Positions 675 to 20,794 of a stretch of DNA of 38,570 nucleotides are shown here, in pieces (the stretch's first letter is position 1; each line of letters starts with the position of its first letter). The stretch covers positions 1 to 38,570 of IMG/VR virus record IMGVR_UViG_3300025585_001602. One strand, written 5' to 3'. Made by a program: the position numbers and the translations under genes. The stretch comes from a virus. The notes beneath the pieces are model-generated. The model searched no databases, had not been told where the DNA came from, and saw nothing but the letters and a program-made list of their open reading frames with translations.

Positions 675-3600
675 TCAGTCGTTCGCCTTCATCTCCCTGA
701 TGATTGCCCTCGGAGTGGTCGCTTTTAGCTTCTCCTCGGGCGTACCGTAGGTCATGATCCAAATGTCCTTAAATCGCCTAAGTGCGTCCTCTATGCCGTA
801 TGTCTGTGTCAGCAGCTTTTCCTCTCTAAGCACAGGCGCCAGCTTGCGCCACACGGTTATTTTGTTAGCATCCTTCCCGGCAGACTCTACAGCATCCCGC
901 AAGACGCTTCCTAGACGCTCTGAGCGTGCAGCCTCGTCAGCCATCAGAGTAGACTTCTCCCTACGCAAACGCTGCTCCACACCCTTGTCAGAAGCTCTGA
1001 CATACCGACGCATGATCGGCCCAATGACCGGGACGCGCCCAATCTCATTGATCATGTCATCCTTCGTTTCGTCGCTAGAGAAGTTTATGACTGTACTGAA
1101 ATACTTGCGAGCCTCGTACTCCACTGCCTGCTTTACAGCCTCTGGCACTTCCCCGCGCATTGCTGGTGCGACCACGCCTGCGGCCATCGCTCCACGATCA
1201 ATGGCGGGCATGCCTCGGTAGGTATCATAGGGGCTCACGCCACTCGCAAGCAGCATCAAGTCCAGCATCATTGCTGGTAGTGGTGCCAGGCTATCAGGCT
1301 TTGCAGGTGCTTGGTTAATGGCGGTCCTGCCGATCTCGTCAATGTCGATTCGCTCGCCAAGAAGCGGGCGCGTGGTAGCCCATGCCAGCCCGCCAAAGAA
1401 GATGCCAGTGTGGTCAGAAGGTAGCGGGATGTAGGTTGGGGTGCCATCCTTAGTGAAACCGAGCGGGATGACAGTGTAATTCATCAGGTCGCTGTCAGGG
1501 ACGGTGTTGTAGAAGCGCTTCAACCAGTCCTCTTCCTCATCCAGCCCGAGCAAGTATCCAAGCATGCCCAACTGTAACCCGCGCATTAGCAGCTTGGGTG
1601 CAATGTCCACTGCGGCAACCTTGAACATGTAGGCTAGCTTCTGCTCCTTGGCCGCCTTGTAGGTAGACCGCAAACCTTGAATATTGATGTTAGAAAACAG
1701 GAACAGCCCGTTCATTGGCCTGCGCCAACGTCCACCGGCCAGCGCATCAGGTGTGCCAGCCATAGTGCGCACGCGCTCCGACACCCTCATGACGCCCTCG
1801 CGCTCAATGTAGCCCTCATTGATCATGCGGTAAGCGTTCGCCGCCTTGCTCCACCGCTCGAAAAACAGGTTCCACGTCTCGACGCCATCCTTTGCTTTCG
1901 TCAGCACGCGCAACAGTACATTCTTGTTGATGTTCTTCTCCCCTGCTAGTCCATGAATGTGGGCCATGCGCTCGACTTCCGTTTCGTAGTCGGCCTGATT
2001 GGCTGCGTCATAGGCAAGGTTGGGGATGAGCATGTTGTTCTTGTAGGCAAACTTGGTGAGCATAGTGGACTCACCTTTCACCGCGTCGATGTAGGCATCC
2101 TGCCACGTCCTGCGCAGGCTGTTGATGACCGGGATTGGGTTTACCCCTGGCGTGTTCTTGTAACCGGTCGCTACATCCTTCATGAAGGCAACCGGCCCAA
2201 AGCCGGGATTCCACGTCGTAAGCGACCTCCTGAACCACCCTGACACCCACATGTTTTGGACGATCTTGGTAAAGTTGTTCATCTCGACAAGGTTCGTCTC
2301 GTATGCCAGCGCGATGGCGCGGTCGATGATTACTGCTTGTAACTTCCCGTCGAGTGAGTACTTCATGAGTTGCTTTGTTGGGTCAGTTGGCTCCTTGTAG
2401 ACAATCTCCCCGCCACTCCTGCGCGACATCGGCGCGTCCTCTACTTCACCCAATTCCTTGCCCACATCAATGACAGTCATCTTTGCCTTGTTCTTCACCG
2501 CTTGCCGAATCAAGGCCATGTCCTTGAGCATAGTGGCGGTAAAAACGTTCTCGACCTCCTCGAACGTGCCGGTCTGCTGAAAGATTCTGCTGTTATCGGC
2601 ATTGGACTTTGTGGAGTAGAATTCCTCGATGTACTTGATCACATTGAACGTGGCGTAGTTCTCATTGTCCTCGATCATCTTCAACAGTTCAGGTGACAAC
2701 AATCGCGAACCGCGCAACTCGGGGAAGATGTACTCCTTGCGCAGATCGTAATACTCGTCTGCTGCCTTCTTGAGTGCTGCCATAGCCTCGGGACCATACT
2801 TTGCCTCCATATCCTTCATGCCCGTCTCTGCTTCTGGCTCAGTGACGCCCAACGGGTTGAAGAAGTACTTGCGCTCGGTTGACGTGCGCCGGAAGAACAT
2901 GTACAAGCCCAACTGATTCCCGTCCATTCCAAATTTTTTAAGGGGGTTCAGGACCATCTTGTGAATATCACGCTGAAACTGATGCTGTGTCGAGTTGATG
3001 TGCTTCATGTCGCGCAGCCACAAGTATGGGTCGAGTATTTCACTACCAGTACGATAGACAGCAGCCTGCTCGTCGATGAGTGTGATCTTCATGTCGCGCC
3101 AGAATTTCTGTACCTGTTCCCATAGGGGTGGGTTCTCGCGCTTGTTTTTGGCTTTGCGCTTTGCATCGCCAAGACGCTGCATCTCTTCGACACGATCCAC
3201 CACAGACTCGCTGTATTTTCCGTCGTGCAGTTCGGTCTGAATCTGCTCGTAGAGCGCCTTTACCTCGGGGTTGCGTTCGAGGTAGGCGAAGAATCCACGC
3301 GAGAATTCGGGTGCCTTCATCTTGAACGCCTGCGGATTATTCAGCAGGACAGACATCGCCTCGGCGTAGAGTTCTTTTGCAGAGTAGCGATACTGCGTGT
3401 ACTTCTCGTTATCGTTGGCGTCGAAGGGATTCCACCAATGCGTGAGCGCCTTGAGTTCGTCGCGCACGCCGGGGTAACTGACATCCCATGCGTCCATCAG
3501 CTTGGACTTGATTTTGTTCTCCAGCAAGAGGCCGCGATTCTCCGCTTCCTCGATGAGACGGTAGCGATAGTACGCAGAGGTGTAGAATCCCTTGCGGTCG

Positions 3601-6600
3601 TCGCCCTTCTCGAAGGGGCCATAGTCACGGGCGGCGTCGATGGCTGCTTCCTTGCGCCACTTCGCCCGCTCTTCTTTGGTGAACGGCTGCTCCAGCGATT
3701 CAGGCTCGGGCGCCATTGATGTCTTGAAGTGCCGTTGCAACTTTGCAATCCTGCCCAGCACGTTGCCGCGCGACATGGTTTCGTCTGGCAGGTAATCAAT
3801 GAGATGCCCTAGCTCGTGCGCCATAACGCGGCCAGCATAGTCTGGGTCGCGCAGGTAGGCGTTCATGACGTGTATGGTGCGATTGCCGGAGCGTTCGCGG
3901 TCAGTCGTGACAACCACCTGCTCAGGGTCAACGCCAAGCTCCTCGGCGACTGCATCGAGGAAGTCCGACTTCTCCTGCTCGTCGAACGGGGACTTGCTCG
4001 TCTGTTCTGCAACGCGCTCGCCGATGGCTAGATCTGCGCGAAGGCGAATCGTAGTGTCACCGACGCCGTGCATGAACACGCCCAGGCGCTCAGGCTTGCG
4101 TGGGAATCTCTTGACGACTTCGGGGTTCCTGCCGAGCAGCTTCTGAATCATACGGACCATGGCTGTCTGTGGGACGCGGTATGGGGTATCTCCCTCGTCA
4201 TCCGTGACTTGCTCGCGCGTTGGGCCGGAAGCGGGGTACTCGCTCCTATTGGCGTCAACCTTACCTGCGGCGCCGAAGGGGTTGATGGCTGCGCCACTGT
4301 TGCCGAGACGGCGGTATTCGATGGCGAACCGCTTGGCGTAGGCGCGCGCGTGCTCGCCGATGTCGCGGACTACTTTCGCGATGAAGTCTGTGGCGTTCTT
4401 TGCCGATTCATAGATGACTCGCAGGTGCGGCTTGGCGCGGTCGTAGGCGTCCTTGGAGAGCTTGGATCCCGCAGTGATGATTGCGCGCAATGCCTCCACG
4501 GGGTCAATGCTTGTTTCGGCTTTTTGTGGCCCTTGCCCCTTTTGGCGCCGAATGTCCGCGACCTGCTCCTCGATAGTTACAGGGCTACCATCGTTCATGG
4601 TTTGGACTGAGTTTGCCGGGAATCCAGATTCTACTCTCAGCTTTGAAGATTCGCTCTTCGCCCTTGCTCCGAGAGGGGCGAGAGGGGCGATCCCTTCTAT
4701 CGGTTTGCCTGTCAGCCTTTGATGGACAGCGCTTGCTGCTTCCGGGGAAACAACAGTCACCGATCCGTCTTGTGGAACAACGATCTTGATCGGGCGTTCC
4801 GGTGTCGCCTCTTCTGCGTGCTCACGCAACTGCTGCGCCACGTACTGTTCTTGGCTTGGCTTAAACCCGGTGGCCTCTTTGACCTTCTTCTTGTCTGCTG
4901 CGACAAAAGCCTCTTCTTCTGGCGTTGCGGTGACTACGACAGGTCGTGGCTTGCGGGACTCGCGAGCCTTTTGCAACGCTATATCAGCCCTCATTAGTTC
5001 GGCTCGCGCATCATCAACAGCTTTCTCAGCCTTGGCACGCGCTGCCTTGGACTTGCTGCGATAACGATTCGACTCGGCTTCTTTGACTTTTTGGCGCGCT
5101 TTGGTGCCCAGATCGAATAGGCGAGACACTTCCTCTTCTGTGGCAATGGGAGACTCAATCGCCTGTTCTGCTGGCTGTTGCATCTCTGTACCAGCCTGCT
5201 TCGCTACAGGGGTTGGTGAGGCGTCTTTCTCAGCAGGGAAGGTCTGTGTCACTTCTCGCTTCGTTACGCCAGCAGACTCTTTGGGGTCCGTGACCTGATC
5301 CACAACCGCTACCTTCATCCCATTATCGGTGGCAAACTTAACGTAATCCTCCAGCTTGCGCACAGGAAAGCCTGCCATGAGTGCTTCGCCGCGACGAGTC
5401 AAAGGGAGTCCCATGACATCTGCTGCTGTCTGAGCGTCCTCATAAAACAACTCATAAAAGTCGCCCATACGAAACATCAAAAGCGCGTCGCTTGCCTGCT
5501 CTTTCGCTTCGATGAATTGGCGAATAACCGGGGATGCTTTGGACTTGTCAATGTCGCGCCATGACGGAGTTGCCTCCTTGCCTGCGAAACTTTTCGGCTT
5601 GCCCTTGGCCTGCTGCTCGACCGGAATCGGAGATACCTCGGGCTTTCGATCTACCTTCGGGGCAAACCTTTTTCCCGAGAGCTGCTTGACTTGTCCCTTC
5701 AACTCCATGAGCGTTAGCGTAGTCAGGGCGTCTCGAACTGAGATCTTGTTAGCAAGAGCTACCTCATCAACAAAAGACCCCTCACTGGACAGCGACTTTA
5801 GAACACGAGCTTCTTTGTCGGTGACACTTTCAGATTCAGGCGCCCCCTCCGCCGCCTTCATCGCCTTCGTCGCCGCCGCCTTGGTCTTGTGCCCGAGTGA
5901 GAGCGTCTCGCCGTCGCGCTGAACCATCCACGTGCCGTCGTTGTCCTTGACGGTGGTCAGGGTGGGAGTAGTGACGGGCTGCTCGGTAGGTTTCGCATCC
6001 TTCCCCACCAGCCTGTCGAACGCCTTGTTCTGCCCCTCGGAGACCACAGGCTCGGCCTTGCCCTCGATGGCGGCGAGGTTCTGCGCGGCGGTCTGGAGCG
6101 TCTGGGTGCGGGATAAAGGTTGAGTGCTATTCTCAAGCCTTGCAGCTTGGTCTCTCATATCATGGATGCTTTGAGATAATGTGTCGCCTTTGTAGGCTAT
6201 CCACTCCCCACCAGATTCTTTCTGATATATAGTGAATCGATCTACAGGGGTCCCATCTTTGCGCCTAGCAACGTACTCTTTTGAACGCACCCCCATAGAT
6301 GGTTTGTCTTTGCCTTTAACGCCGCTCTTATCAGATACAGTGTCTAATGAGACTGGTACTCCTTTGTAAGACAATCCTCGCCTATCCTGTCCAGTCTGCT
6401 CGGAGGGTTGCGCGGCGGTCTGTAGCGCGGACTGGCGGGCGTCGGAGGCTTCCCTAAAGAACGCCATGTCCGAGACCTTGACGTATCCATCAGGCAGCTT
6501 CATGCCGAACTTCTCAAGATCGCGAACAGGTATATTCGCTCTTGCCTCTATGGCAGAAGTCAGTTTGGCAAACTCTCTTGCAGCCAAAGCTCCTTGCGAC

Positions 6601-9600
6601 ATTCCATCCCGTAGTGCCCCATTATAGGCTTGATCTTTTGGTGAAAGACCGCTTGGTAAATCCGGGAATGGTCCATCCGGTTTGCTTACACCAGACTCAA
6701 AACCTTTCTGAAACGCATTTCGCAAGACGTTTGTTTTGAAGCTGATTCTCGGTTTCCCAGTACCTTTTTGTGGAGCACCGGTCAGGAAAGCTATTGCGTT
6801 GCCAATGTGCTCAGGAGTCATTTGTGACTGCGCTGCTGTTGGTGAATCCTTCTCCCCGTACTTCGCCGCGAGGTCGGGGTAGTCGGCGAGGACGGCGGGC
6901 GGGACGGGCTGGCCGTCGCGGAGGGCTTGATTAACAAGTTCACGATGATATGGTTTGGCTATTTTTGCGTTGGCTCTTGCGGCAAACCCTCCTGACGCAG
7001 GAATGGCCGCAGACTGCTTAACAAACTCCTCCCTCGTCATCTCCCACGGCTGCTTCTGCGGAGCGGGTTCACTTCCCTCCGTGAGCCTGTCGAACGCCTT
7101 GTCCGGCTTGGCCTGCGCCGTGCCCGCGTCGATGTCCGCCATCTGCTTGCCAATGGTGTTCAGCAGGCCAGGGGTCTTGGATGGGGGCTGTGGTTGTTCA
7201 GCCGGGAACATCTCATTGAACGCATCCGAGATTTTCTGATTCCCCCCCATTTCCACGGCACGCCTGATAAGGTCTGGTGAAACTCCTTCCCTCTTTAGTG
7301 CGCGTAGCCACATTTCTGCGGCTGCATTTCGACCGTCACGGGCTTTCGTCACAAGATATTGAAGCATCTTCTTCGGTGTTACGTCACGAAAACCCTTTTC
7401 GCGTTGCCTCGCATCAAGCCCCTTAACTAGCAGCCGGTTCTTGGTTTCGCGGGTTGTGCCAAAGAAGGTGGGGAACACCTTGCGATCGGCCACGAGGTTT
7501 TTGTCCTTTTCAACGGACTCTAGCAGCGCAGTCAGTTTCGGTGCTATTTGGCGCGCCTTCTCAGGATTCGTGATACGGTCAACGTTGAATTCAGCGATGA
7601 TCTCATCGGCGGAAAGCAGGTAATTAAAGAAGCGCACATCAGCATTTTTTGTTGAACTGACAGTCTCGCGCAAACCGGGATAAAGGGACTGCTCAATAGC
7701 CTGCAATTCCGCAAGCACAACGGGGTCGCTGTTGACCTTATCCCCAAGCAGCGAGTGTGAAGCATGACCTAGTTCATGCGCGAGCACGCGCCCCCGATCT
7801 ACACCCTTCACGCTACTACTGATCGCCACCCCGCCGTGAAAGTGTGCGCCAAGCCACGATGGAGACCACAGCGACTTCACGTTGGATATGGACGCACCGT
7901 AGGCATTCGATACCCGCTCGTTCATATCCTCGGGCAAATCTATTTCCTGCCTCTGATAGCCGATAGCCTCAAATCTCTTTTTCGACCGATCTTTGTCGAG
8001 AATGTTCCCTTCTTCTTTCCCTCCAGAAACCGAGTTGAACCCACCTTTCTTTACCACCAAGTCTGGTACGCTGCGAGCGTTCTGCAAGCTGGGCTGCGAC
8101 GGTGGAGAGAATTCAACCTGCTTCTCAAGAGTCTCGTTGAACTTGTCCGTTTGTTCGATTACGGGCAAGGAATCTGCTTTGTTGCCCTGCGGTTTAGGAA
8201 GGACACCGGGCGTGGGGGCGGGCAACTGTCCAGCATTGCTGGACAGTTCAGGTGCGGCAGTCTTGGAGGGGGGGGATGGTTGTTCATCTCGGTTGAGTTC
8301 AAAGACACGACGCGCTCTGGTGGCCCTATCTCTTGCTTGGTTAGCCTTTTCGCGAAGGGTTTCAAGAATCGACTGATACTTCGGGTGATCTTGTTCAACC
8401 CCAGGCACCTGCCGTTCGGCACTTGCGGCATCTGCTTCAATTTGCTCCACCAACACTGTAGCTACATCTTCGCGTCCCATATCCAACGCTGTTTTTATTC
8501 CAAGGAATCCTGCTGTCTCCCCACCGTCAACACTGGTCCCCCCGGAAATTCCAACCAGACCTAACAATATTTCTAAGGGTGACGCTTCACTTCCAAGAAT
8601 TTCACCTCTACCAAAACGCTCATCTTGAATTGCCTCCTTCTCATCAAGAATCGCATCACGACGCTGTTTCAGCGTGGGTGCCCCCTGCGGTTCAGGAAGG
8701 GCACCGGGCGTGGGGGTAGTGAAGGGTGAAGAACCTTCGGGCGAACGAAGATCTGGGTAAAGTACATCGACCGAATCACCGGGTTCCCTTGTTCCATACG
8801 AGAAACCGTCCACCCGAGAAGTGTCGAACTCAGAATCCATCCGTTGTCGCGCTACCGTGCTCGCGTCCATCGCTTCTTGGTGCGTATAGAACGGGCCAGC
8901 AACAGGGCGCATGGCATTATCAGGGTTAGCCGAACGGGCGAACACATAGATGTCCTTGCCCCGCGCTTCTGCTGGGGTATTAACTCTGCCCTGCTTCCTG
9001 TTTGCGATCTTTTCGATACGCGCCTTTGCTGCACGGGCCTTCTCGTTTAGCGGCTCCCAATAAGTCTTGTTTTGAGCATTCGAGTAGGCATTGCTACCAT
9101 AAATGACATTACCTTCGGGGTCAGACCAAGCAGCTTCCCCTGTATTGAATCTTGCTTTACGAATCCTATCCCTTGTGGCGTACAGGTCATCCGTAGACAT
9201 GCGCGAGTATCTGGCAATCGCGTTGTCTCGATACTGCTGCGGAGTGTCAGCGATCATCTCCAGAACAACGTCTGGCACATCTTTGCGGCCAACGACATTG
9301 CCATCGCGAAGGAACTCGATCCTTAGACCGCTCTCGCTCGAATCTGCTTCCCATATCCTGAACGACTCATTTGCTGTTGCCTGAGAATTGGACGGCGTAG
9401 CTTCCTGCCCAGTAGTCAAGTCATCCTTGACAACTGCCTGCTCGGGCTGCGGTGCTGGCATCTTCCAACTGTCTTGTGCAGCCTTTAAGGATTCATTGCC
9501 ATCCTGAAATTCTTTAGTCTGAGCAAGGCGATCCATTGCCCCCTTGTCGGGAGTGCGATAGCCTTGGTCGGCCATTTCTCTTAGCGCATCTTCCGCTGAG

Positions 9601-11876
9601 TTATAGGTCTGGTGTCCAGACAACCCACGCCTGTCGAAAATCTGCAATCGGAATTGTCCAGGTTTCCCACTCATTTCAGGGACCAATACCGCCCACCGTG
9701 TACCATCACTGTTGGACGCCTCGACGCCCACATGCTTGCCACCATTTGATTCCAGCAGGCGCTCTTGAGTGAGGGCTTTCCGCTTGCTGTAGAGCTTCGA
9801 CGCACCAACCAGGTCTTGTTGATTAAGTGCTGACTCGATTGCGCGATTTAGTTCTTTATCTTCGGCGTCGAAATCTCTTGCAGTAGGCTCAACCGGCTGC
9901 GGCCTGCGCATCATCTGCTGTCCCGGCTGCGCTTGCCCGGTAAACGTCTTGATCGGAATTGGATCACGTTTGGTACCCGATTCCGGCGCGGGTTGGATCG
10001 CTTCTGGCTGGGTTTCCCGCTTCGCCATCTCGCGCTCAATCGCCGTGCGCACGGGCTTCGTCATGCCACCCTGCTCCAGCATCGACTGCAACTGCTCGGT
10101 GGGCATGTCGGCGTAGACTAGCTTGACCTTGCCCTTGGGCTGCTCAGGCTGGACCGGCTGCTGCTCTGGCGCAACTACCTCGGGGTTGGCCTCGGCTACC
10201 ACGGGCTGCTCCTGCATCGGCGAGGCAATCGGCTGCTCGGCGGCGGGGACAGGGCTCACACCTGCCACCGTGCTCCAACTCGGCGCGTCCTGCATCTCGC
10301 GACCAGCTTCGCGAATTCCCTGCGCGGCTGCATCGCCGAAGTCCGATACAACAGAGTCGCGCACGCCTCGGCCAATATCCGGCGCTCGCGATGCACCAAT
10401 GCTCAGGCTGGTTTCCAGCGCCAGGTTAAGCCACTGCTTCACGTAGTCGCCGGTCGTCATCTTCTCGCCGACGTTGCTCATCTGCGCGTCAGCAGTCTGC
10501 AAGGCCCACGTGATCGTCTCTTCGGGCAGTTCCTCGCCATACGCGAGCAAGGTGCGCTTCAACGCGGGCGCTAGGCTCGTCTTTACCGTCTTCACTGCTT
10601 CTGGCGAGATAGCCGTGAAGGGGAGTTTCTCAAGGCCGGGGAGTCCTGCTGCTTGGAAAGCACCCATGACGGCGCCCTCATAGAGCGACTGACGGCGGGC
10701 GTAGTTCACCAGTTCCTCGCCCTGCAATCCAGATGCCTGACCTTGACGCAAGCCGTCGTCGTAGGTCGTCGTCATCATTTGCGCCATGATGGCCGGGAAA
10801 CCGCCAACGGCGCCAGAGACGCCCGACTGGATGAGGGTAGACGCGGCATTCTGTGCGGCGGGGCGCAATACCTGCCCGATAGGTCCAAGGTTCTGCTTGT
10901 CTGTCTCGGTGGATACTTCGGAGAGTAGCGACTTGTCGGCTGCAATCTGGTCGGCAGTCTTGCGGTCGCTCATGGCCGTGGCCAGTGTCGTCCCGAAAGC
11001 CATGCCAGCATCGAGGGCACCACCAGCGACAACGCGCTTGGCTGCATTCCCTTCGGTGGCTGCGCTTGTCACCGCCTGATTGAATCCTCGCTCCAGTCCA
11101 CTCGGGGGAGTCGTGGGGTTCATCGTGTCGAGCGTTACTTGCGCTGCATCTCCCAGCACGTTGAACGGCGGGATTTGCGTGATGCCCTTCGTCATCGTCT
11201 GCACTGCTGCGACAGGGAATGCTGCCGCCTCACTCATCGCATTGCCAAGTTCGGCGGGCGTAGCGAGACGTTCTTGCGCTTTGGCGTCCCCGATGGCCGC
11301 GAACATGCCGCGCTCCTGCGGGGCGAACGCTGCGGGGTTGGGCGCCTGGTCGAGCGTGATGGGCTTCTGTTGCCCGATGCCCATGTATTCCTTGACGCGC
11401 TGCTTGTACTGGACTGTCTCGTTGGGCAGGGGCTTGCCTGCATCCACGTTGCCCATGCCGAAGTTGTAATACTCCAGCGCCTTGTCAATGTCGTTACCAG
11501 AGCGCTCCAAGAGGCTCTTGATGTAGCGCACGCCGCCGTCGATGTTCTGGTCAGCATCGAAGGGGTTTACGCCGAGTTCCTTCGCCGTGGCCGGCATAAG
11601 CTGCATGACACCGACAGCGCCTGCCGGGGAGACGGCCTGCGGGTTATTGTTGGACTCAGCGCGCGCCATGGCCATCGCCAGCGAGGGGTTGACGTTGTGG
11701 CGCTTCGCGGCCTCGTAGACCTTCAAAGGCACTTCGCCATGCTGCTGCGCGAACTGGGCGCGCGTCATGCGCACGGGCTGCTGTGTCGGCGCTGCTGGAG
11801 CGGCTGTGGGCGCTGGGGGCTCTTGCCCGAATTGCTGACGGTACTGCTCGCGCGTCATGCGGATAGGCTCTGCCAT
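675..11876 (-). CDS. Giant 3,733-residue polyvalent virion (ejected) protein: lytic transglycosylase, two zincin-like domains, DprA-like winged helix, MutS domain I-like, LPD38-like C-terminus
   Basis: Residues about 50-165 form an SLT-type lytic transglycosylase (ARAESNNNP with likely catalytic E74; GAVGVMQLMPATA; ALEYYNFG), which would open peptidoglycan during DNA entry. HELGH motifs at 1367-1371 and 2687-2691, each with a later Glu-containing helix, mark two zincin-like metallopeptidase domains. Residues about 2018-2072 resemble the DprA winged helix (ELKGQVKQLSGKRF). Residues about 2115-2210 match MutS domain I, including the Phe-X-Glu in RMGDFYELFYEDA (F2140, E2142). The C-terminal ~800 residues, with TTWNPGFGPVAFMKD, resemble large polyvalent protein-associated domains (LPD38 type). 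RMTR-type motifs recur at 6-9, 36-39 and about 1610. Long Pro/Glu/Gln-rich linkers join the parts. The start ATG shares one base with the preceding TGA. It is the last gene of the late operon, after three putative ejection proteins. Domain names rest on motif recognition only. Confidence 0.85.
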   Translation of the reverse strand: MAEPIRMTREQYRQQFGQEPPAPTAAPAAPTQQPVRMTRAQFAQQHGEVPLKVYEAAKRHNVNPSLAMAMARAESNNNPQAVSPAGAVGVMQLMPATAKELGVNPFDADQNIDGGVRYIKSLLERSGNDIDKALEYYNFGMGNVDAGKPLPNETVQYKQRVKEYMGIGQQKPITLDQAPNPAAFAPQERGMFAAIGDAKAQERLATPAELGNAMSEAAAFPVAAVQTMTKGITQIPPFNVLGDAAQVTLDTMNPTTPPSGLERGFNQAVTSAATEGNAAKRVVAGGALDAGMAFGTTLATAMSDRKTADQIAADKSLLSEVSTETDKQNLGPIGQVLRPAAQNAASTLIQSGVSGAVGGFPAIMAQMMTTTYDDGLRQGQASGLQGEELVNYARRQSLYEGAVMGAFQAAGLPGLEKLPFTAISPEAVKTVKTSLAPALKRTLLAYGEELPEETITWALQTADAQMSNVGEKMTTGDYVKQWLNLALETSLSIGASRAPDIGRGVRDSVVSDFGDAAAQGIREAGREMQDAPSWSTVAGVSPVPAAEQPIASPMQEQPVVAEANPEVVAPEQQPVQPEQPKGKVKLVYADMPTEQLQSMLEQGGMTKPVRTAIEREMAKRETQPEAIQPAPESGTKRDPIPIKTFTGQAQPGQQMMRRPQPVEPTARDFDAEDKELNRAIESALNQQDLVGASKLYSKRKALTQERLLESNGGKHVGVEASNSDGTRWAVLVPEMSGKPGQFRLQIFDRRGLSGHQTYNSAEDALREMADQGYRTPDKGAMDRLAQTKEFQDGNESLKAAQDSWKMPAPQPEQAVVKDDLTTGQEATPSNSQATANESFRIWEADSSESGLRIEFLRDGNVVGRKDVPDVVLEMIADTPQQYRDNAIARYSRMSTDDLYATRDRIRKARFNTGEAAWSDPEGNVIYGSNAYSNAQNKTYWEPLNEKARAAKARIEKIANRKQGRVNTPAEARGKDIYVFARSANPDNAMRPVAGPFYTHQEAMDASTVARQRMDSEFDTSRVDGFSYGTREPGDSVDVLYPDLRSPEGSSPFTTPTPGALPEPQGAPTLKQRRDAILDEKEAIQDERFGRGEILGSEASPLEILLGLVGISGGTSVDGGETAGFLGIKTALDMGREDVATVLVEQIEADAASAERQVPGVEQDHPKYQSILETLREKANQARDRATRARRVFELNRDEQPSPPSKTAAPELSSNAGQLPAPTPGVLPKPQGNKADSLPVIEQTDKFNETLEKQVEFSPPSQPSLQNARSVPDLVVKKGGFNSVSGGKEEGNILDKDRSKKRFEAIGYQRQEIDLPEDMNERVSNAYGASISNVKSLWSPSWLGAHFHGGVAISSSVKGVDRGRVLAHELGHASHSLLGDKVNSDPVVLAELQAIEQSLYPGLRETVSSTKNADVRFFNYLLSADEIIAEFNVDRITNPEKARQIAPKLTALLESVEKDKNLVADRKVFPTFFGTTRETKNRLLVKGLDARQREKGFRDVTPKKMLQYLVTKARDGRNAAAEMWLRALKREGVSPDLIRRAVEMGGNQKISDAFNEMFPAEQPQPPSKTPGLLNTIGKQMADIDAGTAQAKPDKAFDRLTEGSEPAPQKQPWEMTREEFVKQSAAIPASGGFAARANAKIAKPYHRELVNQALRDGQPVPPAVLADYPDLAAKYGEKDSPTAAQSQMTPEHIGNAIAFLTGAPQKGTGKPRISFKTNVLRNAFQKGFESGVSKPDGPFPDLPSGLSPKDQAYNGALRDGMSQGALAAREFAKLTSAIEARANIPVRDLEKFGMKLPDGYVKVSDMAFFREASDARQSALQTAAQPSEQTGQDRRGLSYKGVPVSLDTVSDKSGVKGKDKPSMGVRSKEYVARRKDGTPVDRFTIYQKESGGEWIAYKGDTLSQSIHDMRDQAARLENSTQPLSRTQTLQTAAQNLAAIEGKAEPVVSEGQNKAFDRLVGKDAKPTEQPVTTPTLTTVKDNDGTWMVQRDGETLSLGHKTKAAATKAMKAAEGAPESESVTDKEARVLKSLSSEGSFVDEVALANKISVRDALTTLTLMELKGQVKQLSGKRFAPKVDRKPEVSPIPVEQQAKGKPKSFAGKEATPSWRDIDKSKASPVIRQFIEAKEQASDALLMFRMGDFYELFYEDAQTAADVMGLPLTRRGEALMAGFPVRKLEDYVKFATDNGMKVAVVDQVTDPKESAGVTKREVTQTFPAEKDASPTPVAKQAGTEMQQPAEQAIESPIATEEEVSRLFDLGTKARQKVKEAESNRYRSKSKAARAKAEKAVDDARAELMRADIALQKARESRKPRPVVVTATPEEEAFVAADKKKVKEATGFKPSQEQYVAQQLREHAEEATPERPIKIVVPQDGSVTVVSPEAASAVHQRLTGKPIEGIAPLAPLGARAKSESSKLRVESGFPANSVQTMNDGSPVTIEEQVADIRRQKGQGPQKAETSIDPVEALRAIITAGSKLSKDAYDRAKPHLRVIYESAKNATDFIAKVVRDIGEHARAYAKRFAIEYRRLGNSGAAINPFGAAGKVDANRSEYPASGPTREQVTDDEGDTPYRVPQTAMVRMIQKLLGRNPEVVKRFPRKPERLGVFMHGVGDTTIRLRADLAIGERVAEQTSKSPFDEQEKSDFLDAVAEELGVDPEQVVVTTDRERSGNRTIHVMNAYLRDPDYAGRVMAHELGHLIDYLPDETMSRGNVLGRIAKLQRHFKTSMAPEPESLEQPFTKEERAKWRKEAAIDAARDYGPFEKGDDRKGFYTSAYYRYRLIEEAENRGLLLENKIKSKLMDAWDVSYPGVRDELKALTHWWNPFDANDNEKYTQYRYSAKELYAEAMSVLLNNPQAFKMKAPEFSRGFFAYLERNPEVKALYEQIQTELHDGKYSESVVDRVEEMQRLGDAKRKAKNKRENPPLWEQVQKFWRDMKITLIDEQAAVYRTGSEILDPYLWLRDMKHINSTQHQFQRDIHKMVLNPLKKFGMDGNQLGLYMFFRRTSTERKYFFNPLGVTEPEAETGMKDMEAKYGPEAMAALKKAADEYYDLRKEYIFPELRGSRLLSPELLKMIEDNENYATFNVIKYIEEFYSTKSNADNSRIFQQTGTFEEVENVFTATMLKDMALIRQAVKNKAKMTVIDVGKELGEVEDAPMSRRSGGEIVYKEPTDPTKQLMKYSLDGKLQAVIIDRAIALAYETNLVEMNNFTKIVQNMWVSGWFRRSLTTWNPGFGPVAFMKDVATGYKNTPGVNPIPVINSLRRTWQDAYIDAVKGESTMLTKFAYKNNMLIPNLAYDAANQADYETEVERMAHIHGLAGEKNINKNVLLRVLTKAKDGVETWNLFFERWSKAANAYRMINEGYIEREGVMRVSERVRTMAGTPDALAGGRWRRPMNGLFLFSNINIQGLRSTYKAAKEQKLAYMFKVAAVDIAPKLLMRGLQLGMLGYLLGLDEEEDWLKRFYNTVPDSDLMNYTVIPLGFTKDGTPTYIPLPSDHTGIFFGGLAWATTRPLLGERIDIDEIGRTAINQAPAKPDSLAPLPAMMLDLMLLASGVSPYDTYRGMPAIDRGAMAAGVVAPAMRGEVPEAVKQAVEYEARKYFSTVINFSSDETKDDMINEIGRVPVIGPIMRRYVRASDKGVEQRLRREKSTLMADEAARSERLGSVLRDAVESAGKDANKITVWRKLAPVLREEKLLTQTYGIEDALRRFKDIWIMTYGTPEEKLKATTPRAIIREMKAND

Positions 11877-15111: not shown

Positions 15112-15654
15112 TTACAACTCCACTGTGTAGCGGAACGTGCAGGACGCTCCAAGCATTTTGGCGATGGCGTTGATGGCCTTGTTGTCGGGAGTTGAGTCGA
15201 ACTGGAGATGCGTGCAGCCAAGCGACTTCGCGTGAGGAATCAGGTATCCCTGCGCTGCCTTTGCCCACGCTTCCGGTGTGACATTGTTCGCCATCAGGAG
15301 CGCGTTGATGTAAAAGAGCTTTTCCGCGCCAGCCGTGGTCAACTGTGCAGTAGCCACCCCGGCTTTCTGTCCGTTCGGTGCAAGCAACCAGTAGGCACGG
15401 AGCGCGCCAGTCTTTAGCGCTGTTGCTAGATGCGAAAGCACGGTGCCGCTAATCTGCGAATCGGGGATGACTTGGGAGAGCATGGACAGCAGGATGCGCT
15501 GCGTTACCTCGCGGCCACACTCCTCGGGGGTAATGAGTCGAACGTCGAGATGCTCAAGCCCCTTCTGCGGGGGCTGTTGCCCCTCGACGATAGGCTCGGT
15601 GCTCGGCGTTGTATCGGACGAAAACTCCTTGGAGAGAGTAGCCTGTTCCAACAT
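15112..15654 (-). CDS. GNAT-like phage protein in the tail cluster
   Basis: About 180 residues starting MLEQATLSKEF, with AAGGGGA upstream of the ATG. After a disordered 30-residue N-terminus, the alternation of strands and helices (GALRAYWLLAPNGQKAGVATAQL; LFYINALLMA; LIPHAKSLGCTHLQFDS; NKAINAIAKMLGASCTFRYTVEL) resembles a Gcn5-type acetyltransferase core, including the terminal beta-bulge region. A clear acetyl-CoA pyrophosphate loop (Q/RxxGxG/A) is not evident, so it may be a structural GNAT-fold protein. The start overlaps the end of the upstream tail gene by 101 nt in another frame, which is unusual here. No better start with a ribosome binding site was found. Confidence 0.55.
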   Translation of the reverse strand: MLEQATLSKEFSSDTTPSTEPIVEGQQPPQKGLEHLDVRLITPEECGREVTQRILLSMLSQVIPDSQISGTVLSHLATALKTGALRAYWLLAPNGQKAGVATAQLTTAGAEKLFYINALLMANNVTPEAWAKAAQGYLIPHAKSLGCTHLQFDSTPDNKAINAIAKMLGASCTFRYTVEL

Positions 15655-17107
15655 TTCCCGTCCCCTTGATGGTTGGCCGGAAGTCGTTCGAGCTTCGCTT
15701 GGGGAAAGCAACGCCATCCGAGTTAATGGATTCCGCCGCTGGGAATAACGAGTAAGCCTCGGTGGCGCCATCACGGGCGTACATCTCGACTTGCACGTCA
15801 TCCAATGACTCATAACTGACCTCGACGACTGTAGTGGCTTTGGTGCCTCGATGGTTCATATCGTTCTGGTGAAGCTGGAATTCGACGTTTACTTCGTCTT
15901 GACTGTCAAGCCCAATCCCAGTTCCTCGCAGGACACCATTATACCGGAAAACTCCTGTTGGGCATACAGTCATCGGACCACCAAGTCGATTCTGTTGCGT
16001 CAAGACAAAACATGTATCTGCGTCGGAGATCCAGTAGTCGCCAACTTCGGGGTCGTGACTGATGACCGGCGAGGAAAGACCGCTCAGTTTGTGGCGCCAT
16101 CCGAGCGGGTCGCCGATGCCTTGCCCCAGCACCCAGCGATACAGGTCGCCAGTTTTCGATAGCCATACCGTGTCGCGTTCAACGCCACATGCGGCACCCC
16201 GGCTGGCGACTTGCGTCTCGCGAACGAGACTTCCGACATAGCCTGGGCCACCTTGCTCGGGAGTGAACTCGTAGAGTGCGCGGTCGCCGAACGCGAGGAT
16301 GCGATTGCCCTGAGAGACTATGACCTGTGGCGTACCACCACGGCGCATGCTGGCAAAGCCGATAGCGCCTGCCTCCACCAACCCGCGAAGAACGCCTTCC
16401 ACCTTGTCGAATGCAGTGTTGCCATAGCAGCCGAGGGCCGTGAGCAGAAGCTGATACGGGGCCGAAACGTCGCCACCGATAGGCTCGCCATACACGATCC
16501 AGCGGTCGCTCCACGTCTGCAAGTCGTGCGTGAAATGCTTCTTGCGCGCGCGGAAGGTGTTGAACAGCGACTGGAATCGCGTACCACTGAACCATGAACC
16601 ACCAAGCCCGCCAAGCACGAGGCGGTCGTAGTGCATGCCGATGGTCTTGCACGTGATGGGCGTCATGATCTGCGTGTTCTTCGTGCCGTTGGTGTTGCGC
16701 GGGAGATTGCCCACGAGGTTAAGGCCATCGCAGGCGAACCACACGTCTTCTGCCGATGCTACCTGCCAGTAGTCGCCACCAGAGGCGAGCGATGTCGCCG
16801 TCGCGTTGTCGGCGCTGTCGTACAGCGTCAGGGCCGTCTTGGCGTTGTTGGCGGGGTTTACCGTGCTGATGCCGCTGCTTTCGAGTAGCAACATGGTCTG
16901 GTCGCCATAGAACAGGCGCGTGCGCGGCCATGTGGCCGTGACAGAGACTCCCTCAGTGATGTGCTCAGGGTTGGTTGCACAGCCTGCCAGTGCGCGAGGT
17001 ACGAGATTCGCCATGGTCTGCGCAAACGGTGCGCCTGCGGGCACGTGCTCATGCGGCACAATCCCGTTCGTCAGCGCTTCCTGAATCTCGAAGGCGTACT
17101 CACGCAT
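15554..17107 (-). CDS. Tail protein, third of three tandem paralogues
   Basis: 517 residues, mostly beta-rich, with repeated short hydrophobic strands and many Gly, Asp and Trp (DVWFACDGLN, RWIVYGEPIGG, GDLYRWVLGQG, VGDYWISDADTCFVLTQQ). It shares with the two genes upstream an opening of the form AP(F/Y)-x-Q-x-M-x-N-L and the motif Y-W-x-x-D-x-D-x-x-F-x-L near residue 360. The pattern suits a beta-propeller-like tail nozzle or tail-tube protein of a short-tailed phage. The ATG overlaps the previous stop by 8 nt. Function inferred from gene order (adaptor, then tail proteins) and fold pattern. Confidence 0.65.
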   Translation of the reverse strand: MREYAFEIQEALTNGIVPHEHVPAGAPFAQTMANLVPRALAGCATNPEHITEGVSVTATWPRTRLFYGDQTMLLLESSGISTVNPANNAKTALTLYDSADNATATSLASGGDYWQVASAEDVWFACDGLNLVGNLPRNTNGTKNTQIMTPITCKTIGMHYDRLVLGGLGGSWFSGTRFQSLFNTFRARKKHFTHDLQTWSDRWIVYGEPIGGDVSAPYQLLLTALGCYGNTAFDKVEGVLRGLVEAGAIGFASMRRGGTPQVIVSQGNRILAFGDRALYEFTPEQGGPGYVGSLVRETQVASRGAACGVERDTVWLSKTGDLYRWVLGQGIGDPLGWRHKLSGLSSPVISHDPEVGDYWISDADTCFVLTQQNRLGGPMTVCPTGVFRYNGVLRGTGIGLDSQDEVNVEFQLHQNDMNHRGTKATTVVEVSYESLDDVQVEMYARDGATEAYSLFPAAESINSDGVAFPKRSSNDFRPTIKGTGNVGTGYSLQGVFVRYNAEHRAYRRGATAPAEGA

Positions 17108-19034
17108 CGATCCACATCCTCATCGAAGGCGCTGCACCCTCTTCGCTGATAACTGCCTCCAGTCCGTCGCAGTCCACTTTGGTCCTGTCTGCCGCCGTGA
17201 ACTTGTGCGCATGCTCAATGCCCGTGGTGGATACCTCGGCGCGCCCGCGAACGTCGAACAGCTTCGCGTAGCTGGTAAACGTAGTGAAGTCATTGTGCTT
17301 GTGCAGCTTCGCCACCGGGGTCGCCTTCCAGCGATCAGCAGCACTCGATGCCGTGTCGGTGGTCTTCATGTTCCACCACAGCACTTCAAATGCCTCGCGG
17401 CGTCCGCTGCTGATGGGGTGCGTCTGCATCTCCACATCGTCGGCGCCGGAAGATATGCTGGATCCCACCATGCCGTTGTACCCTGGCGTGCGAATCACAC
17501 TGACCGGGAAAAGCCCGTTCGGGTTGGACAGTCCCGTGCGCGAGAGCATGAATGCCTCGTCGGAGTCGCAAACCCAGAAGTAGCGCTCGGTGGGGTCGAA
17601 CGTCATGCGGGCCGCAGTGAGCGTCAATGTGCTCAAGTACTCCGCGTAGCCCAGCCGGTACAGTCCGCCGCCCATGGGCTTTGCCTCGGGGAAGCTGGCG
17701 CCGCGCTCGCCAAGGAAATACATCTCGTTGTGCTTCGAGACGAATACCTGCTCCTTGTTGTCGCCAGCGTAGCACCCGTTGAACGGAATGCCCGTGGCCA
17801 GCAGGCGCTGCTCAATCGGGCCTGCTTCCGTCGCGGAGACGACGGAGACGCCCTCAGTGCCGTAGACCACAAGGTCGTTGCCGAACTGACGGGCAGAAAG
17901 CCCTGCGCCCGTGTGACGCAAGGGAAGGAAGTCCACCAGCCCCTGCTCAATCCACTTGAGGATGATGGGCTCGTACTTCTCGTAGTAGAACGTCTCGCTT
18001 GGGTAGCCGAGCAGCGCCATCATGCCGGAAGCGGGCACGTCGCTTTCGCCTAGCACCGGGGGACCAATGATGAGCCAGGTCGTGTCGAAGTTGTCGTCCT
18101 CGGAGGTGACGACGTTGACCTTCTGCTTCTTCTTCCACTTGTTGACCGCCGCAGTAAAGCTGTCGCTCTGCGTGCCTGTTCCAGACGCGCCGATAAGCAC
18201 GAGGCGATTGTTCCAGTTGGCCACGCCGTTGCAGACGGTCGTCGTGCTGCCCAGGGTGCGGTTATCGGTGGAGCCGGGAATCCGCCACATGAACGACGTG
18301 CCGTTCGTGGCAAACCAAATGTCGAGGAAGCTGGCGAACTGCCACGCCCCGCTGCCGGTCGCTGCGAATACGGGCACGGCGGTCACGGTGTCCAGCGTGC
18401 AGGTCAGGGACGATGCAGCCGTGAAAACAAGCCCGTCCGAGTGCGAGTCGGCCAGCACAAGGCGCGTGTAGGTGCCGTTGGTGCTTACTGCGCTGCCCCC
18501 CTGCGATGCCGTGGTGTTCGTGCCAACAGTCAGCGTGCCGCTGCCAGAGTAGCTCGCCACGGTGAATGTCACGAGGTATGTCACCCCGCTTGTCCACTGC
18601 GTTGTCATGCTGGCCTTGGGCTGCTTTGCCGTTGCCGATGCTGCGGTGAATGCGATGGCGTTCGAGGAGTAGGCAATGCCCGAGCCCAACGTCCAACCCG
18701 TAGCATTGCCGGTAAACGTGCCATTGGAGAGCACGTTGCCCTCTGGACCGTAGGCAGTGATGGCCGTGGTCGTCAGGGCCGAAGGGTCGATCGTGTAGAG
18801 CGTGTTGTTGATTGCCGCCATCGCAGTGCGGTCGTCAGAGTAAAGCTCCGCGTGCGGGAAGCTCGCGTGTTGCGCTTGGAAGCCTGCGGGCCAGTTGAAT
18901 GTCGGGAGCTGCTTGGCACGCCGCTCGGTGGCCATCAGGTTGCGCATCTTCTGCATGTAGGGGGCATCCACAGGCAGGTCGGAGTAGGGGCGCAATCCGT
19001 TGATGAGATGCTGGTCAAGGGTGATCGTTTGCAT
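17100..19034 (-). CDS. Tail protein with inserted carbohydrate-binding-like beta-sandwich, second of three paralogues
   Basis: 644 residues from MQTITLDQHLINGLRPYSD; a GGAG site about 10 nt upstream supports this ATG over a longer opening. Residues 1-98 and 223-644 match the neighbouring tail proteins (motifs APYMQKMRNLM; RYFWVCDSDEAFMLS; SNPNGLFPVSV). Residues about 100-222 are a separate Ser/Thr/Gly-rich module starting VLSNGTFTGNATGW, similar to carbohydrate-binding jelly-roll modules. Related modules lie in the head-tail adaptor gene and in the decoration-type gene at 29997-30881. Likely a tail nozzle or tubular protein that has gained a surface module. It starts 4 nt after the previous stop. 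Confidence 0.65.
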   Translation of the reverse strand: MQTITLDQHLINGLRPYSDLPVDAPYMQKMRNLMATERRAKQLPTFNWPAGFQAQHASFPHAELYSDDRTAMAAINNTLYTIDPSALTTTAITAYGPEGNVLSNGTFTGNATGWTLGSGIAYSSNAIAFTAASATAKQPKASMTTQWTSGVTYLVTFTVASYSGSGTLTVGTNTTASQGGSAVSTNGTYTRLVLADSHSDGLVFTAASSLTCTLDTVTAVPVFAATGSGAWQFASFLDIWFATNGTSFMWRIPGSTDNRTLGSTTTVCNGVANWNNRLVLIGASGTGTQSDSFTAAVNKWKKKQKVNVVTSEDDNFDTTWLIIGPPVLGESDVPASGMMALLGYPSETFYYEKYEPIILKWIEQGLVDFLPLRHTGAGLSARQFGNDLVVYGTEGVSVVSATEAGPIEQRLLATGIPFNGCYAGDNKEQVFVSKHNEMYFLGERGASFPEAKPMGGGLYRLGYAEYLSTLTLTAARMTFDPTERYFWVCDSDEAFMLSRTGLSNPNGLFPVSVIRTPGYNGMVGSSISSGADDVEMQTHPISSGRREAFEVLWWNMKTTDTASSAADRWKATPVAKLHKHNDFTTFTSYAKLFDVRGRAEVSTTGIEHAHKFTAADRTKVDCDGLEAVISEEGAAPSMRMWIDA

Positions 19035-19038
19035 GGGT

Positions 19039-20628
19039 CTACTCCGTTGCTGCACCCGGCGCGGCTGCACGAATCCAGTGCGCCATGGCCGGGTTGTTCA
19101 TGGGTTCAGTGAGGACGCGAATGTCTTCGAGGGTGACTGCCTCGCGGTCGTTCGCGCGCAATGCAATCTCTGCTTCGAGGTAGGGAATGCCGAAATCAAC
19201 GCCACCCTCGCCGTCCAGTTCATACCAGTCGGTTTGCGTGAAGTCGTCCTGCGGGCGCAGGCGATACTTGATGCTTGCCTCCCAGCCGTTAGTCGAGGAA
19301 TTCATTCCCACCACGAGTATTCTGGAAAGTGTCTCGACACTGCCGGATGGGCCGCGAAACTTTTCTGTCACGTAGGACGCTGCATCATCGAGATAGAACA
19401 CAGCGCCATAAAGCTCGCCGGGGCCAAGTCCTGCGACTCTGGACGGCATCCACGGCGCCCGCGTCAGCCCGTTCTTGTTGAGCAGGAACGCATCTCCGCT
19501 GCCATCCCCGATGTAGAACTCATCGTGGTAGGGCTCGTGAATTACCATGAGCGTCGCGAGGTCAAGCGATGAGATGGGCGCCTTGTAGCCCAGTCGCTCG
19601 GCGCGATAGGTGTTGTCAATCTGCCAAAGCTCTCCGCTGGCTGAGACAAGGATGTGTCGGCGCTCGTCGCCAGCAACGCACGTGCGCGTTGAGCCGATCG
19701 GAAGGCTCATCTGCTGCGGCATGTTTACCGGCGTCACGACGGCATAGGTGTCGGCGTAAGGGTCAAGCACACTCGAACCGCCATCGCCATAGATCGCCAC
19801 CCCGTTGCCGAGGGGGATAGCGTTGGTGATAGCGCCGCGCCAGGGGAGCGGGCGAAGGCCGGACTGGTTCATCTGCTCCAGTTCCAGCACGAACGGGTCG
19901 GTGGCGCTGTAGCCCGTGTCGCTCGCGCTCAGGGACTGGTGAATCAGGATGTCCTGCCAGAACAGGTGCAGCATGTCTGGGGCGAAGTAGCTCGACCACC
20001 ACACCCAGTTGCTGTCCGCGCCTGCCGAGTCGAGCAGTTGCGCCTGCTCTGGCCGGTCGGAAGCGTACGTTTCCCAGAACGTTGCCCAGTCCACCATGGA
20101 AGCGAAGTTCGAGGGTTCAAACCCGCCAAGGATGACGCGCCCTTCTTTGTGCGCGCAGCCCGTGAATACACTCACGGAATCCTGCACAAAAACGTGCTCG
20201 CTCCACTTCGTCTTGAAGACCACGCACTGCACATTGAATAGCATCCAGCAGTCGTAGAGATCGACGAAGTGCCAGTCGTAGCCAGAAGTAATCGCCTTGG
20301 ATGTCGTGCCGGTCGTGTCAGTCGCGTCTTTGGTATTGATGAGCGTATAGGTGCTTGTGCTCAAGTCGAGGCTATAGATAGCGTCGGCGAAGCACATCAG
20401 CGTCACTGCCTTGCCGTAGAATATCTGCGGAAAAGGCCACGCCTTTGACTCGCCAAGCTCAGTGAGCTTGGCGGTGTCAGGGATGTCATAAAGGGCATGG
20501 AAGGGCTTCATGCCGTACTCAGTAGCACGGTGCCCCTTCGCGTCGATGAAGACCTGCGCATTGCGTCCAGTGAACGCCTCGCGCCTAATCCCCGTCTGGC
20601 AAGCTGTGCTGAACGTCAATAAGCTCAA
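19039..20628 (-). CDS. Tail protein, first of three tandem paralogues (TTG start proposed)
   Basis: About 529 residues. The proposed start is TTG at 20628 because it has a strong GGGAGG ribosome binding site 5 nt upstream; another TTG at 20661 would add 11 residues. The protein is beta-rich (RVILGGFEPSNF; NGVAIYGDGGSSV; HDEFYIGDGSGDAFLLNKNGLTRAPW) and lines up with the two genes downstream around the Y-x-x-D-x-x-x-x-F-x-L motif. It overlaps the small coiled-coil gene upstream by 44 nt. Probably part of the short tail, above or within the nozzle. Role inferred from context. Confidence 0.65.
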   Translation of the reverse strand: MSLLTFSTACQTGIRREAFTGRNAQVFIDAKGHRATEYGMKPFHALYDIPDTAKLTELGESKAWPFPQIFYGKAVTLMCFADAIYSLDLSTSTYTLINTKDATDTTGTTSKAITSGYDWHFVDLYDCWMLFNVQCVVFKTKWSEHVFVQDSVSVFTGCAHKEGRVILGGFEPSNFASMVDWATFWETYASDRPEQAQLLDSAGADSNWVWWSSYFAPDMLHLFWQDILIHQSLSASDTGYSATDPFVLELEQMNQSGLRPLPWRGAITNAIPLGNGVAIYGDGGSSVLDPYADTYAVVTPVNMPQQMSLPIGSTRTCVAGDERRHILVSASGELWQIDNTYRAERLGYKAPISSLDLATLMVIHEPYHDEFYIGDGSGDAFLLNKNGLTRAPWMPSRVAGLGPGELYGAVFYLDDAASYVTEKFRGPSGSVETLSRILVVGMNSSTNGWEASIKYRLRPQDDFTQTDWYELDGEGGVDFGIPYLEAEIALRANDREAVTLEDIRVLTEPMNNPAMAHWIRAAAPGAATE

Positions 20629-20794
20629 TGTCGCCTCCCAGCTGCTCTTTGAGTGCCGCAACCTCTTCGCGCAAAACCTCGACCTCGCGCTTCTCCTGTT
20701 CCTTGCGGCGTTGTGCGCGCCGAAGGTGGCGCTCGCGCAATTCCTCTTTCGAGATGCGCGCTATCGGTTTGGGGACGCTGCCGTGCATCTTCAT
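20585..20794 (-). CDS. Small basic coiled-coil protein between adaptor and tail genes
   Basis: 69 residues. Residues about 17-55 are an unbroken charged helix (EELRERHLRRAQRRKEQEKR, then EVEVLREEVAALKEQLGG) with heptad-like spacing, so a coiled coil is likely. The ATG overlaps the TGA of the adaptor gene (ATGA) and the stop lies inside the start region of the first tail gene. This suggests translational coupling. Possible roles are an assembly chaperone or a small virion component; nothing in the sequence settles this. Confidence 0.6.
   Translation of the reverse strand: MKMHGSVPKPIARISKEELRERHLRRAQRRKEQEKREVEVLREEVAALKEQLGGDIELIDVQHSLPDGD

What the first reader, a model, noticed from the sequence alone, without database searches (positions are those of the whole stretch)
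5220..5535. MutS mismatch-recognition domain embedded in a giant phage virion protein
Residues about 2115-2210 of the 3,733-residue protein read like MutS domain I, including the Phe-X-Glu motif (F2140/E2142 in RMGDFYELFYEDA) that MutS uses to stack on a mismatch. The LTRRG and KESAGVTKREV parts also fit. The MutS clamp and ATPase domains are absent. A DNA-structure-reading module without its motor, carried in a protein likely to enter the host with the DNA, could shield incoming phage DNA from host surveillance or sense host DNA. Known background: MutS-type modules are reported in polyvalent proteins of phages and conjugative elements. The role here is inference.
Basis: partly seen in the sequence, partly recalled or inferred. 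Interest (0 to 1): 0.75.

Follow-up and report, generated by a model that had tools for sequence, protein, structure and literature searches.

The report
MutS mismatch-reading domain in phage protein
A giant protein that a bacterial virus probably injects along with its DNA carries the piece of the DNA-repair protein MutS that recognises mispaired DNA, without MutS's motor; it sits in a swappable slot where a sister virus carries anti-restriction-type parts, so it most likely helps protect the incoming viral DNA.

Summary
Residues 2116-2212 of the 3,733-aa protein (window 5241-5531, minus strand) match Pfam MutS_I at E=1.3e-25. They match E. coli MutS at about 1e-18 and fold like MutS domain I. 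F2140 and E2142 align exactly with Phe36 and Glu38, and no other MutS domain is present. The protein is a phage polyvalent protein: N-terminal lytic transglycosylase as in T7-type internal virion proteins, a zinc-peptidase motif, and a conserved C-terminus whose Pelagibacter-phage homologue lies between tail-tube and tail-fibre genes. A sister phage shares the N-terminus (59%) and C-terminus (64%), but has DarB-like methylase motifs plus SNF2 helicase where this phage has DprA-winged-helix plus MutS_I. Domain I without the rest of MutS also occurs in about 50 other viral loci (small genes, ParB fusions, giant proteins); Phe is kept in 98% and Glu in 100%. In all 10 of 43 records checked that carry ArdC-N, it lies within 3.5 kb. 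MutS-I in polyvalent proteins was published in 2017 for Bacteroidetes and Firmicutes, so this is a new variant of a known kind. Most likely role: DNA-distortion binding that protects entering phage DNA (inferred). Rivals: mismatch-repair antagonist, plain DNA tether.

The parts
675..11876 (-). giant polyvalent, gp16-like protein of 3,733 aa that carries the MutS domain I
   Evidence: gene order
5241..5531 (-). MutS domain I, residues 2116-2212
   Evidence: Pfam PF01624 E=1.3e-25; PDB MutS ~1e-18; fold
5451..5459 (-). Phe-X-Glu mismatch motif F2140-Y2141-E2142, equivalent to F36-Y37-E38 of E. coli MutS
5670..5843 (-). DprA-type winged helix, residues 2012-2069, just upstream of MutS_I
   Evidence: Pfam PF17782 E=8.8e-7, 29.3 bits vs cut-off 22.9
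4575..9989 (-). variable middle cassette, residues 630-2434; mostly not homologous to the sister phage, GC3 0.56 against 0.75 and 0.71 in the flanks
9990..11723 (-). conserved N-terminal part, residues 52-629, 59% identical in the sister phage
11442..11714 (-). SLT lytic transglycosylase domain, residues 55-145
   Evidence: Pfam PF01464 E=1.3e-20; PHROG lytic tail protein
678..4574 (-). conserved C-terminal part, residues 2435-3733, 64% identical in the sister phage; homologue in Pelagibacter phage Baldr
   Evidence: weak LPD38 link
3804..3818 (-). HELGH zincin motif in the constant part (residues 2687-2691), conserved in the sister phage
7764..7778 (-). second HELGH zincin motif in the variable cassette (residues 1367-1371)

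Best explanation
The gene encodes a polyvalent ejection protein of a tailed, probably short-tailed, phage. Its N-terminal transglycosylase opens the cell wall and its conserved C-terminus belongs to the internal, ejected protein. The middle is an exchangeable counter-defence cassette. In this phage the cassette holds a DprA-type winged helix followed by MutS domain I. I propose that these two modules enter the cell with, or bound to, the phage genome. The winged helix would give duplex affinity, and domain I would insert Phe2140 at unstacked or distorted sites (mismatches, nicks, gaps, single-/double-strand junctions, genome ends) with Glu2142 contacting the base. This would occupy sites that host restriction or recombination nucleases would otherwise attack, without calling MutL because the ATPase is absent. 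A zincin in the same polypeptide may release the module. Shown: domain identity, motif, absence of motor, module swap, gene context. Inferred: injection, DNA binding, protection, proteolytic release.
For: Domain, fold and motif. Phe is kept in 98% and Glu in 100% of 50 isolated domains. Among sequences matching a search pattern that does not cover the motif, 15 of 16 keep Phe and 16 of 16 keep Glu. MutS work shows that F36A abolishes mismatch binding (PMC3437207) and that Glu38 is needed for discrimination (PMC3848065). Module swap: the sister phage (MCP 84%, terminase 77% identical) shares both ends of the protein, but has SNF2/ResIII helicase and adenine-methylase motifs in the middle and no MutS_I in its 50-kb record. 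DarB, the archetype of that dyad, protects phage DNA in cis from type I restriction (PMC5512222). ArdC-N lies within 3.5 kb of MutS_I in all 10 of 43 viral records that have it, against about 2e-8 for random placement; ArdC is an antirestriction ssDNA binder (PMC7213743). Other giants combine MutS_I with methylase/SNF2, ADP-ribosyltransferase, Zeta-toxin or LPD modules. Ejection: SLT; similarity to an 'internal virion protein with endolysin domain'; Baldr homologue between tail-tube and tail-fibre genes.
Against: I know of no experiment showing DNA binding by an isolated MutS domain I; in MutS, binding also involves the clamp and the dimer. The window domain is divergent (branch 1.73) and lacks some near-invariant residues (R2173 for His74, A2182 for Leu83). 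This phage has no Pfam-detectable ArdC-N in the genes scanned. Presence in virions is not shown. The ArdC linkage comes mainly from the Bacteroidetes-type group, includes related records and two same-ORF cases, so 2e-8 overstates independence.
Confidence: 0.45

Rival explanations
1. Host mismatch-repair antagonist: the injected domain I occupies mismatches or heteroduplexes (or competes with host MutS) so that MutS cannot trigger repair or block recombination between diverged phage genomes.
For: Phe-X-Glu intact and ATPase absent, as in a dominant-negative reader.
Against: Partners and neighbours are mostly antirestriction or conflict genes rather than recombination genes, apart from one RecT neighbour; few copies per virion would have to compete with host MutS (inference).
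Confidence: 0.15
2. Structural DNA tether: the winged helix and domain I simply hold the ejection protein on the leading DNA end during packaging and ejection, with no counter-defence role.
For: gp16-like position and SLT domain; two adjacent DNA-binding-type domains.
Against: The sister phage manages without it and has methylase/helicase parts in the same slot; MutS_I also occurs as free-standing genes.
Confidence: 0.2
3. Recently captured passenger that is drifting, with no present function.
For: Long branch, low-GC3 cassette, loss of some conserved residues.
Against: GDFYE core fully intact, open frame, confident fold, and the same motif retained across many lineages.
Confidence: 0.12
4. 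Chance resemblance, not a MutS domain.
For: None.
Against: E=1.3e-25, a motif-exact alignment and a confident fold match.
Confidence: 0.01

Closest known systems
Polyvalent proteins with MutS-I (Iyer et al. 2017, PMC5512222)
   Same: Isolated MutS domain I inside a multidomain mobile-element protein; zincin motifs; antirestriction-type modules in relatives; predicted transfer with the DNA.
   Different: Reported from Bacteroidetes and Firmicutes and about 80% with ArdC-N; here an SLT-bearing, gp16-like protein of a tailed phage with a DprA_WH neighbour and no detected ArdC-N.
E. coli MutS domain I (PF01624, PDB 1e3m/1wb9)
   Same: Fold, Phe36/Glu38 motif and surrounding GDFYE core.
   Different: No connector, lever, clamp or ATPase; E. 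coli residues 61-65 of one loop are missing; His74 is Arg.
T7 gp16-type internal virion proteins
   Same: N-terminal lytic transglycosylase, very long chain, gene position in the Baldr homologue.
   Different: Carries an exchangeable 1,800-aa cassette with DprA_WH, MutS_I and a zincin motif.
Phage P1 DarB and plasmid ArdC antirestriction proteins
   Same: Occupy the same slot (DarB-like module in the sister phage) or neighbour lone MutS_I genes (ArdC-N).
   Different: Not homologous to MutS_I; DarB has methylase plus SNF2 helicase, ArdC an ssDNA-binding fold.

Membership tests
MutS_I domain family (PF01624) | Score above Pfam gathering cut-off | tested here: met
   90.2 vs 20.6 bits
MutS_I domain family (PF01624) | Phe-X-Glu mismatch motif at the structural position of F36/E38 | tested here: met
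   F2140/E2142
MutS_I domain family (PF01624) | Domain I fold | tested here: met
   pLDDT 85; Foldseek 1e-9, TM 0.75 to MutS
MutS mismatch-repair protein | Connector, lever, clamp and ATPase domains | tested here: not met
   Only domain I matched; NCBIfam covers positions 2-104 of 793
MutS mismatch-repair protein | Asymmetric dimer with MutL signalling | not testable with these tools
   needs protein
Polyvalent proteins (Iyer 2017) | Several unrelated domains in one chain, with phage packaging/late genes nearby | tested here: met
   SLT, DprA_WH, MutS_I; terminase, portal-like and capsid-like neighbours
Polyvalent proteins (Iyer 2017) | Exchangeable effector cassette with a constant part | tested here: met
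   59% and 64% identical ends, largely unrelated middle in the sister phage
Polyvalent proteins (Iyer 2017) | MPTase-type zincin domain | tested here: inconclusive
   Two HELGH motifs, one conserved, but no Pfam MPTase-PolyVal match
Polyvalent proteins (Iyer 2017) | LPD domain | tested here: inconclusive
   hhalign to the LPD38-bearing end of L020, probability 85%; no direct Pfam hit
Polyvalent proteins with MutS-I | ArdC-N in the same protein (about 80% of published cases) | tested here: not met
   No ArdC-N in P0001 or in the neighbouring genes scanned
T7 gp16-like ejection proteins | N-terminal lytic transglycosylase | tested here: met
   SLT E=1.3e-20
T7 gp16-like ejection proteins | Gene between tail-tube and tail-fibre genes | tested here: inconclusive
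   True for the Baldr homologue; the window's own tail genes could not be named
T7 gp16-like ejection proteins | Packaged and ejected into the host | not testable with these tools
   needs virion proteomics or an ejection assay

The most novel reading that the evidence does not exclude
MutS domain I without MutS is a widespread phage DNA-distortion binder in its own right, used as lone genes, ParB fusions and ejected cassettes. It reads non-B or mismatched sites on entering or replicating phage DNA to block restriction or recombination nucleases, making it a class of counter-defence proteins hidden under 'DNA mismatch repair protein MutS' annotations.
Probability: 0.3. Interest if true: 0.75.

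Novelty: new variant of a known kind. Interest (0 to 1): 0.5.

Why it matters
It shows a mismatch-reading module carried in the exchangeable slot of an ejection-type phage protein, where a close relative carries DarB-like antirestriction parts. That makes a long-standing guess about polyvalent proteins (that MutS-I protects entering DNA) testable with a roughly 220-residue fragment and point mutants whose effect is known from MutS. It also shows that MutS_I outside MutS is not confined to polyvalent proteins of Bacteroidetes and Firmicutes: many phages carry it as a small gene or a ParB fusion, which automatic annotation tends to call 'MutS'.

Tried and rejected
Chance match: rejected. Truncated or degraded host MutS: rejected, since the domain lies inside a 3,733-aa open frame with no trace of domains II-V. 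Single origin of all isolated domains: the tree is unresolved; forcing one clade gave AU p=0.07, and forcing the window into the Bacteroidetes-type set gave p=0.155, so I claim neither single nor multiple origin. A link to alphaproteobacterial MutS (shared 'PV' after the MAG/MCG motif) was considered, but the tree does not support it. Composition: the whole cassette, not only the domain, has low GC3. Single-sequence folding of DprA_WH plus MutS_I failed (pLDDT 43). Searches for relatives of the cassette and of the capsid protein, and a megablast of window 1-25000 in phage records, found nothing. The genome-contig scan with the C-terminus gave only a distant MAG fragment. The genome search by phylum or relatives was not possible for a virus record.

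Full report
OBSERVATION. The frame at 675-11876 (minus) is open for 3,733 codons. Residues 2116-2212 match Pfam MutS_I at E=1.3e-25, 90.2 bits against a cut-off of 20.6, and solved MutS proteins at about 1e-18. In an alignment with 29 full-length MutS proteins and 50 isolated domains, F2140, Y2141 and E2142 fall on Phe36, Tyr37 and Glu38 of E. coli MutS. No MutS II-V is found. The AlphaFold2 model (46 sequences, pLDDT 85, at least 92 over most of the core) finds MutS structures as its best PDB matches. The model rests on homologues, so it confirms rather than proves independently.

THE PROTEIN AND ITS PHAGE. The window is a 38.6-kb virus record with a terminase large subunit, a portal-like protein, a weak SU10-like capsid match and DnaB. 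The giant protein starts with an SLT transglycosylase that resembles, among others, an 'internal virion protein with endolysin domain' of an Aeromonas phage. Its C-terminal 1,300 residues have a homologue in Pelagibacter phage Baldr (24% identity, E=2e-36). That homologue's gene lies after the tail tubular proteins and before the tail fibre, which is the place of T7 gp16 (T7 order from general knowledge). I therefore read it as an ejection protein; packaging is not shown.

MODULE SWAP. One sister phage was found (record of 50,261 bp; capsid protein 84% identical, terminase 77%). Its giant protein of 4,704 aa is 59% identical over window residues 52-629 and 64% identical over residues 2435-3733. 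The middle is largely unrelated apart from a few short islands. The sister's middle carries SNF2/ResIII helicase matches and adenine-methylase motifs VLEPGAGVGNF and NVPF, the composition of the DarB-type methylase-helicase dyad. No MutS_I occurs anywhere in that record. The window's middle carries a second HELGH zincin motif, a DprA winged helix (29.3 vs 22.9 bits) and MutS_I, and has GC3 0.56 against 0.75 and 0.71 in the flanks. DarB protects phage DNA in cis against type I restriction (PMC5512222). Same slot does not mean same function, but it places MutS_I in the part of the protein that varies with conflict.

ISOLATED DOMAIN I ELSEWHERE. A profile search of viral contigs gave many loci in which domain I is not followed by the rest of MutS. 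Setting aside two hits that run off a contig end, the viral-contig loci comprised 21 reading frames under 200 aa, 22 of 200-399 aa, 10 of 400-999 aa and 3 giants of 2,400 aa or more (L018, L020, L086), beside 23 full-length or near full-length MutS. Some of these loci are near-copies of each other. Four of the mid-size ones are ParB_N/HTH_ParB fusions or near relatives (L046, L052 and L059 by Pfam; L083 by domain-sequence similarity). The giants combine it with ddrB-ParB, kinase, methylase, SNF2 helicase, ART, pyrophosphatase, Zeta toxin, GGDEF, LPD3 or LPD38. Across 50 isolated domains Phe is kept in 98% and Glu in 100%. Because one search pattern covered GDF, I recounted on sequences matching the other pattern: 15 of 16 Phe and 16 of 16 Glu. 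Of 43 viral records with isolated MutS_I, 10 have an ArdC-N domain, and in all 10 it lies 0.2-3.5 kb from MutS_I (two in the same frame). Random placement gives 2e-8, an overstatement because some records are related. Neighbouring genes also include ArdA (two members) and a polyvalent metallopeptidase.

ORIGIN. Most isolated domains group with Bacteroidetes-type MutS. The window lies outside that set on a long branch, weakly with L036 (87/56). Forced alternatives are not rejected, so whether this was a separate capture is open. The domain has lost a five-residue loop and several conserved residues (His74 to Arg, Leu83 to Ala), yet keeps the GDFYE core.

MECHANISM. From MutS work, Phe36 stacks on a mispaired base, F36A abolishes mismatch binding and E38Q abolishes discrimination (PMC3848065; PMC3437207). 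MutS also binds G4 DNA without needing Phe36. An isolated domain I would read distortions but could not form the sliding clamp or call MutL. With a winged helix beside it, and delivered together with the DNA, the most economical role is to occupy vulnerable or distorted sites on the incoming genome. This matches the 2017 proposal for MutS-I in polyvalent proteins and the linkage to ArdC, an antirestriction protein that prefers ssDNA and overhangs (PMC7213743). Rivals: anti-MMR competitor, structural tether, drifting passenger. Binding, delivery, release and protection are all inferred.

NOVELTY. MutS-I in polyvalent proteins is published; the abundance of lone phage MutS_I genes and ParB fusions, the ArdC-N linkage in phages, the pairing with DprA_WH and the swap against a DarB-like module were not found in the papers I could search. 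That library lacks most subscription journals, and structure databases already hold small phage proteins labelled 'MutS domain I'. Hence: new variant of a known kind.

Noticed in passing
L020:1-7260 (IMGVR_UViG_3300026069_000004): A phage giant protein carries a GGDEF diguanylate-cyclase domain with an intact GGDEF motif just before MutS_I, then a methylase and LPD38. A nucleotide-signalling enzyme in a likely injected protein is unusual.
   Followed up: partly
L046:9920-11983, L052:8616-10571, L059:5210-7216, L083:1264-3285: ParB_N/HTH_ParB plus MutS_I proteins (Pfam on L046, L052 and L059; L083 by similarity of its MutS_I domain and length), with MutS_I at either end of the protein.
   Followed up: partly
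L040, L042, L047, L066, L072, L090 and others: Very small phage genes (about 110-150 aa) that are little more than MutS domain I, beyond the polyvalent proteins that the 2017 paper named as the only place outside MutS.
   Followed up: partly
L110, L112 (sister record, both ends): The portal gene is split across the two ends of the 50,261-bp record, so that contig looks circularly permuted and near complete.
   Followed up: no
window 32391-32933: A second small SLT-like gene on the same strand matches PHROG 'baseplate hub' and a peptidase-type PHROG.
   Followed up: no
window 15554-20661: Three consecutive genes of 517, 656 and 540 aa resemble each other weakly in cross-comparisons with the sister phage (21-28% identity), suggesting duplicated structural genes.
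   Followed up: no
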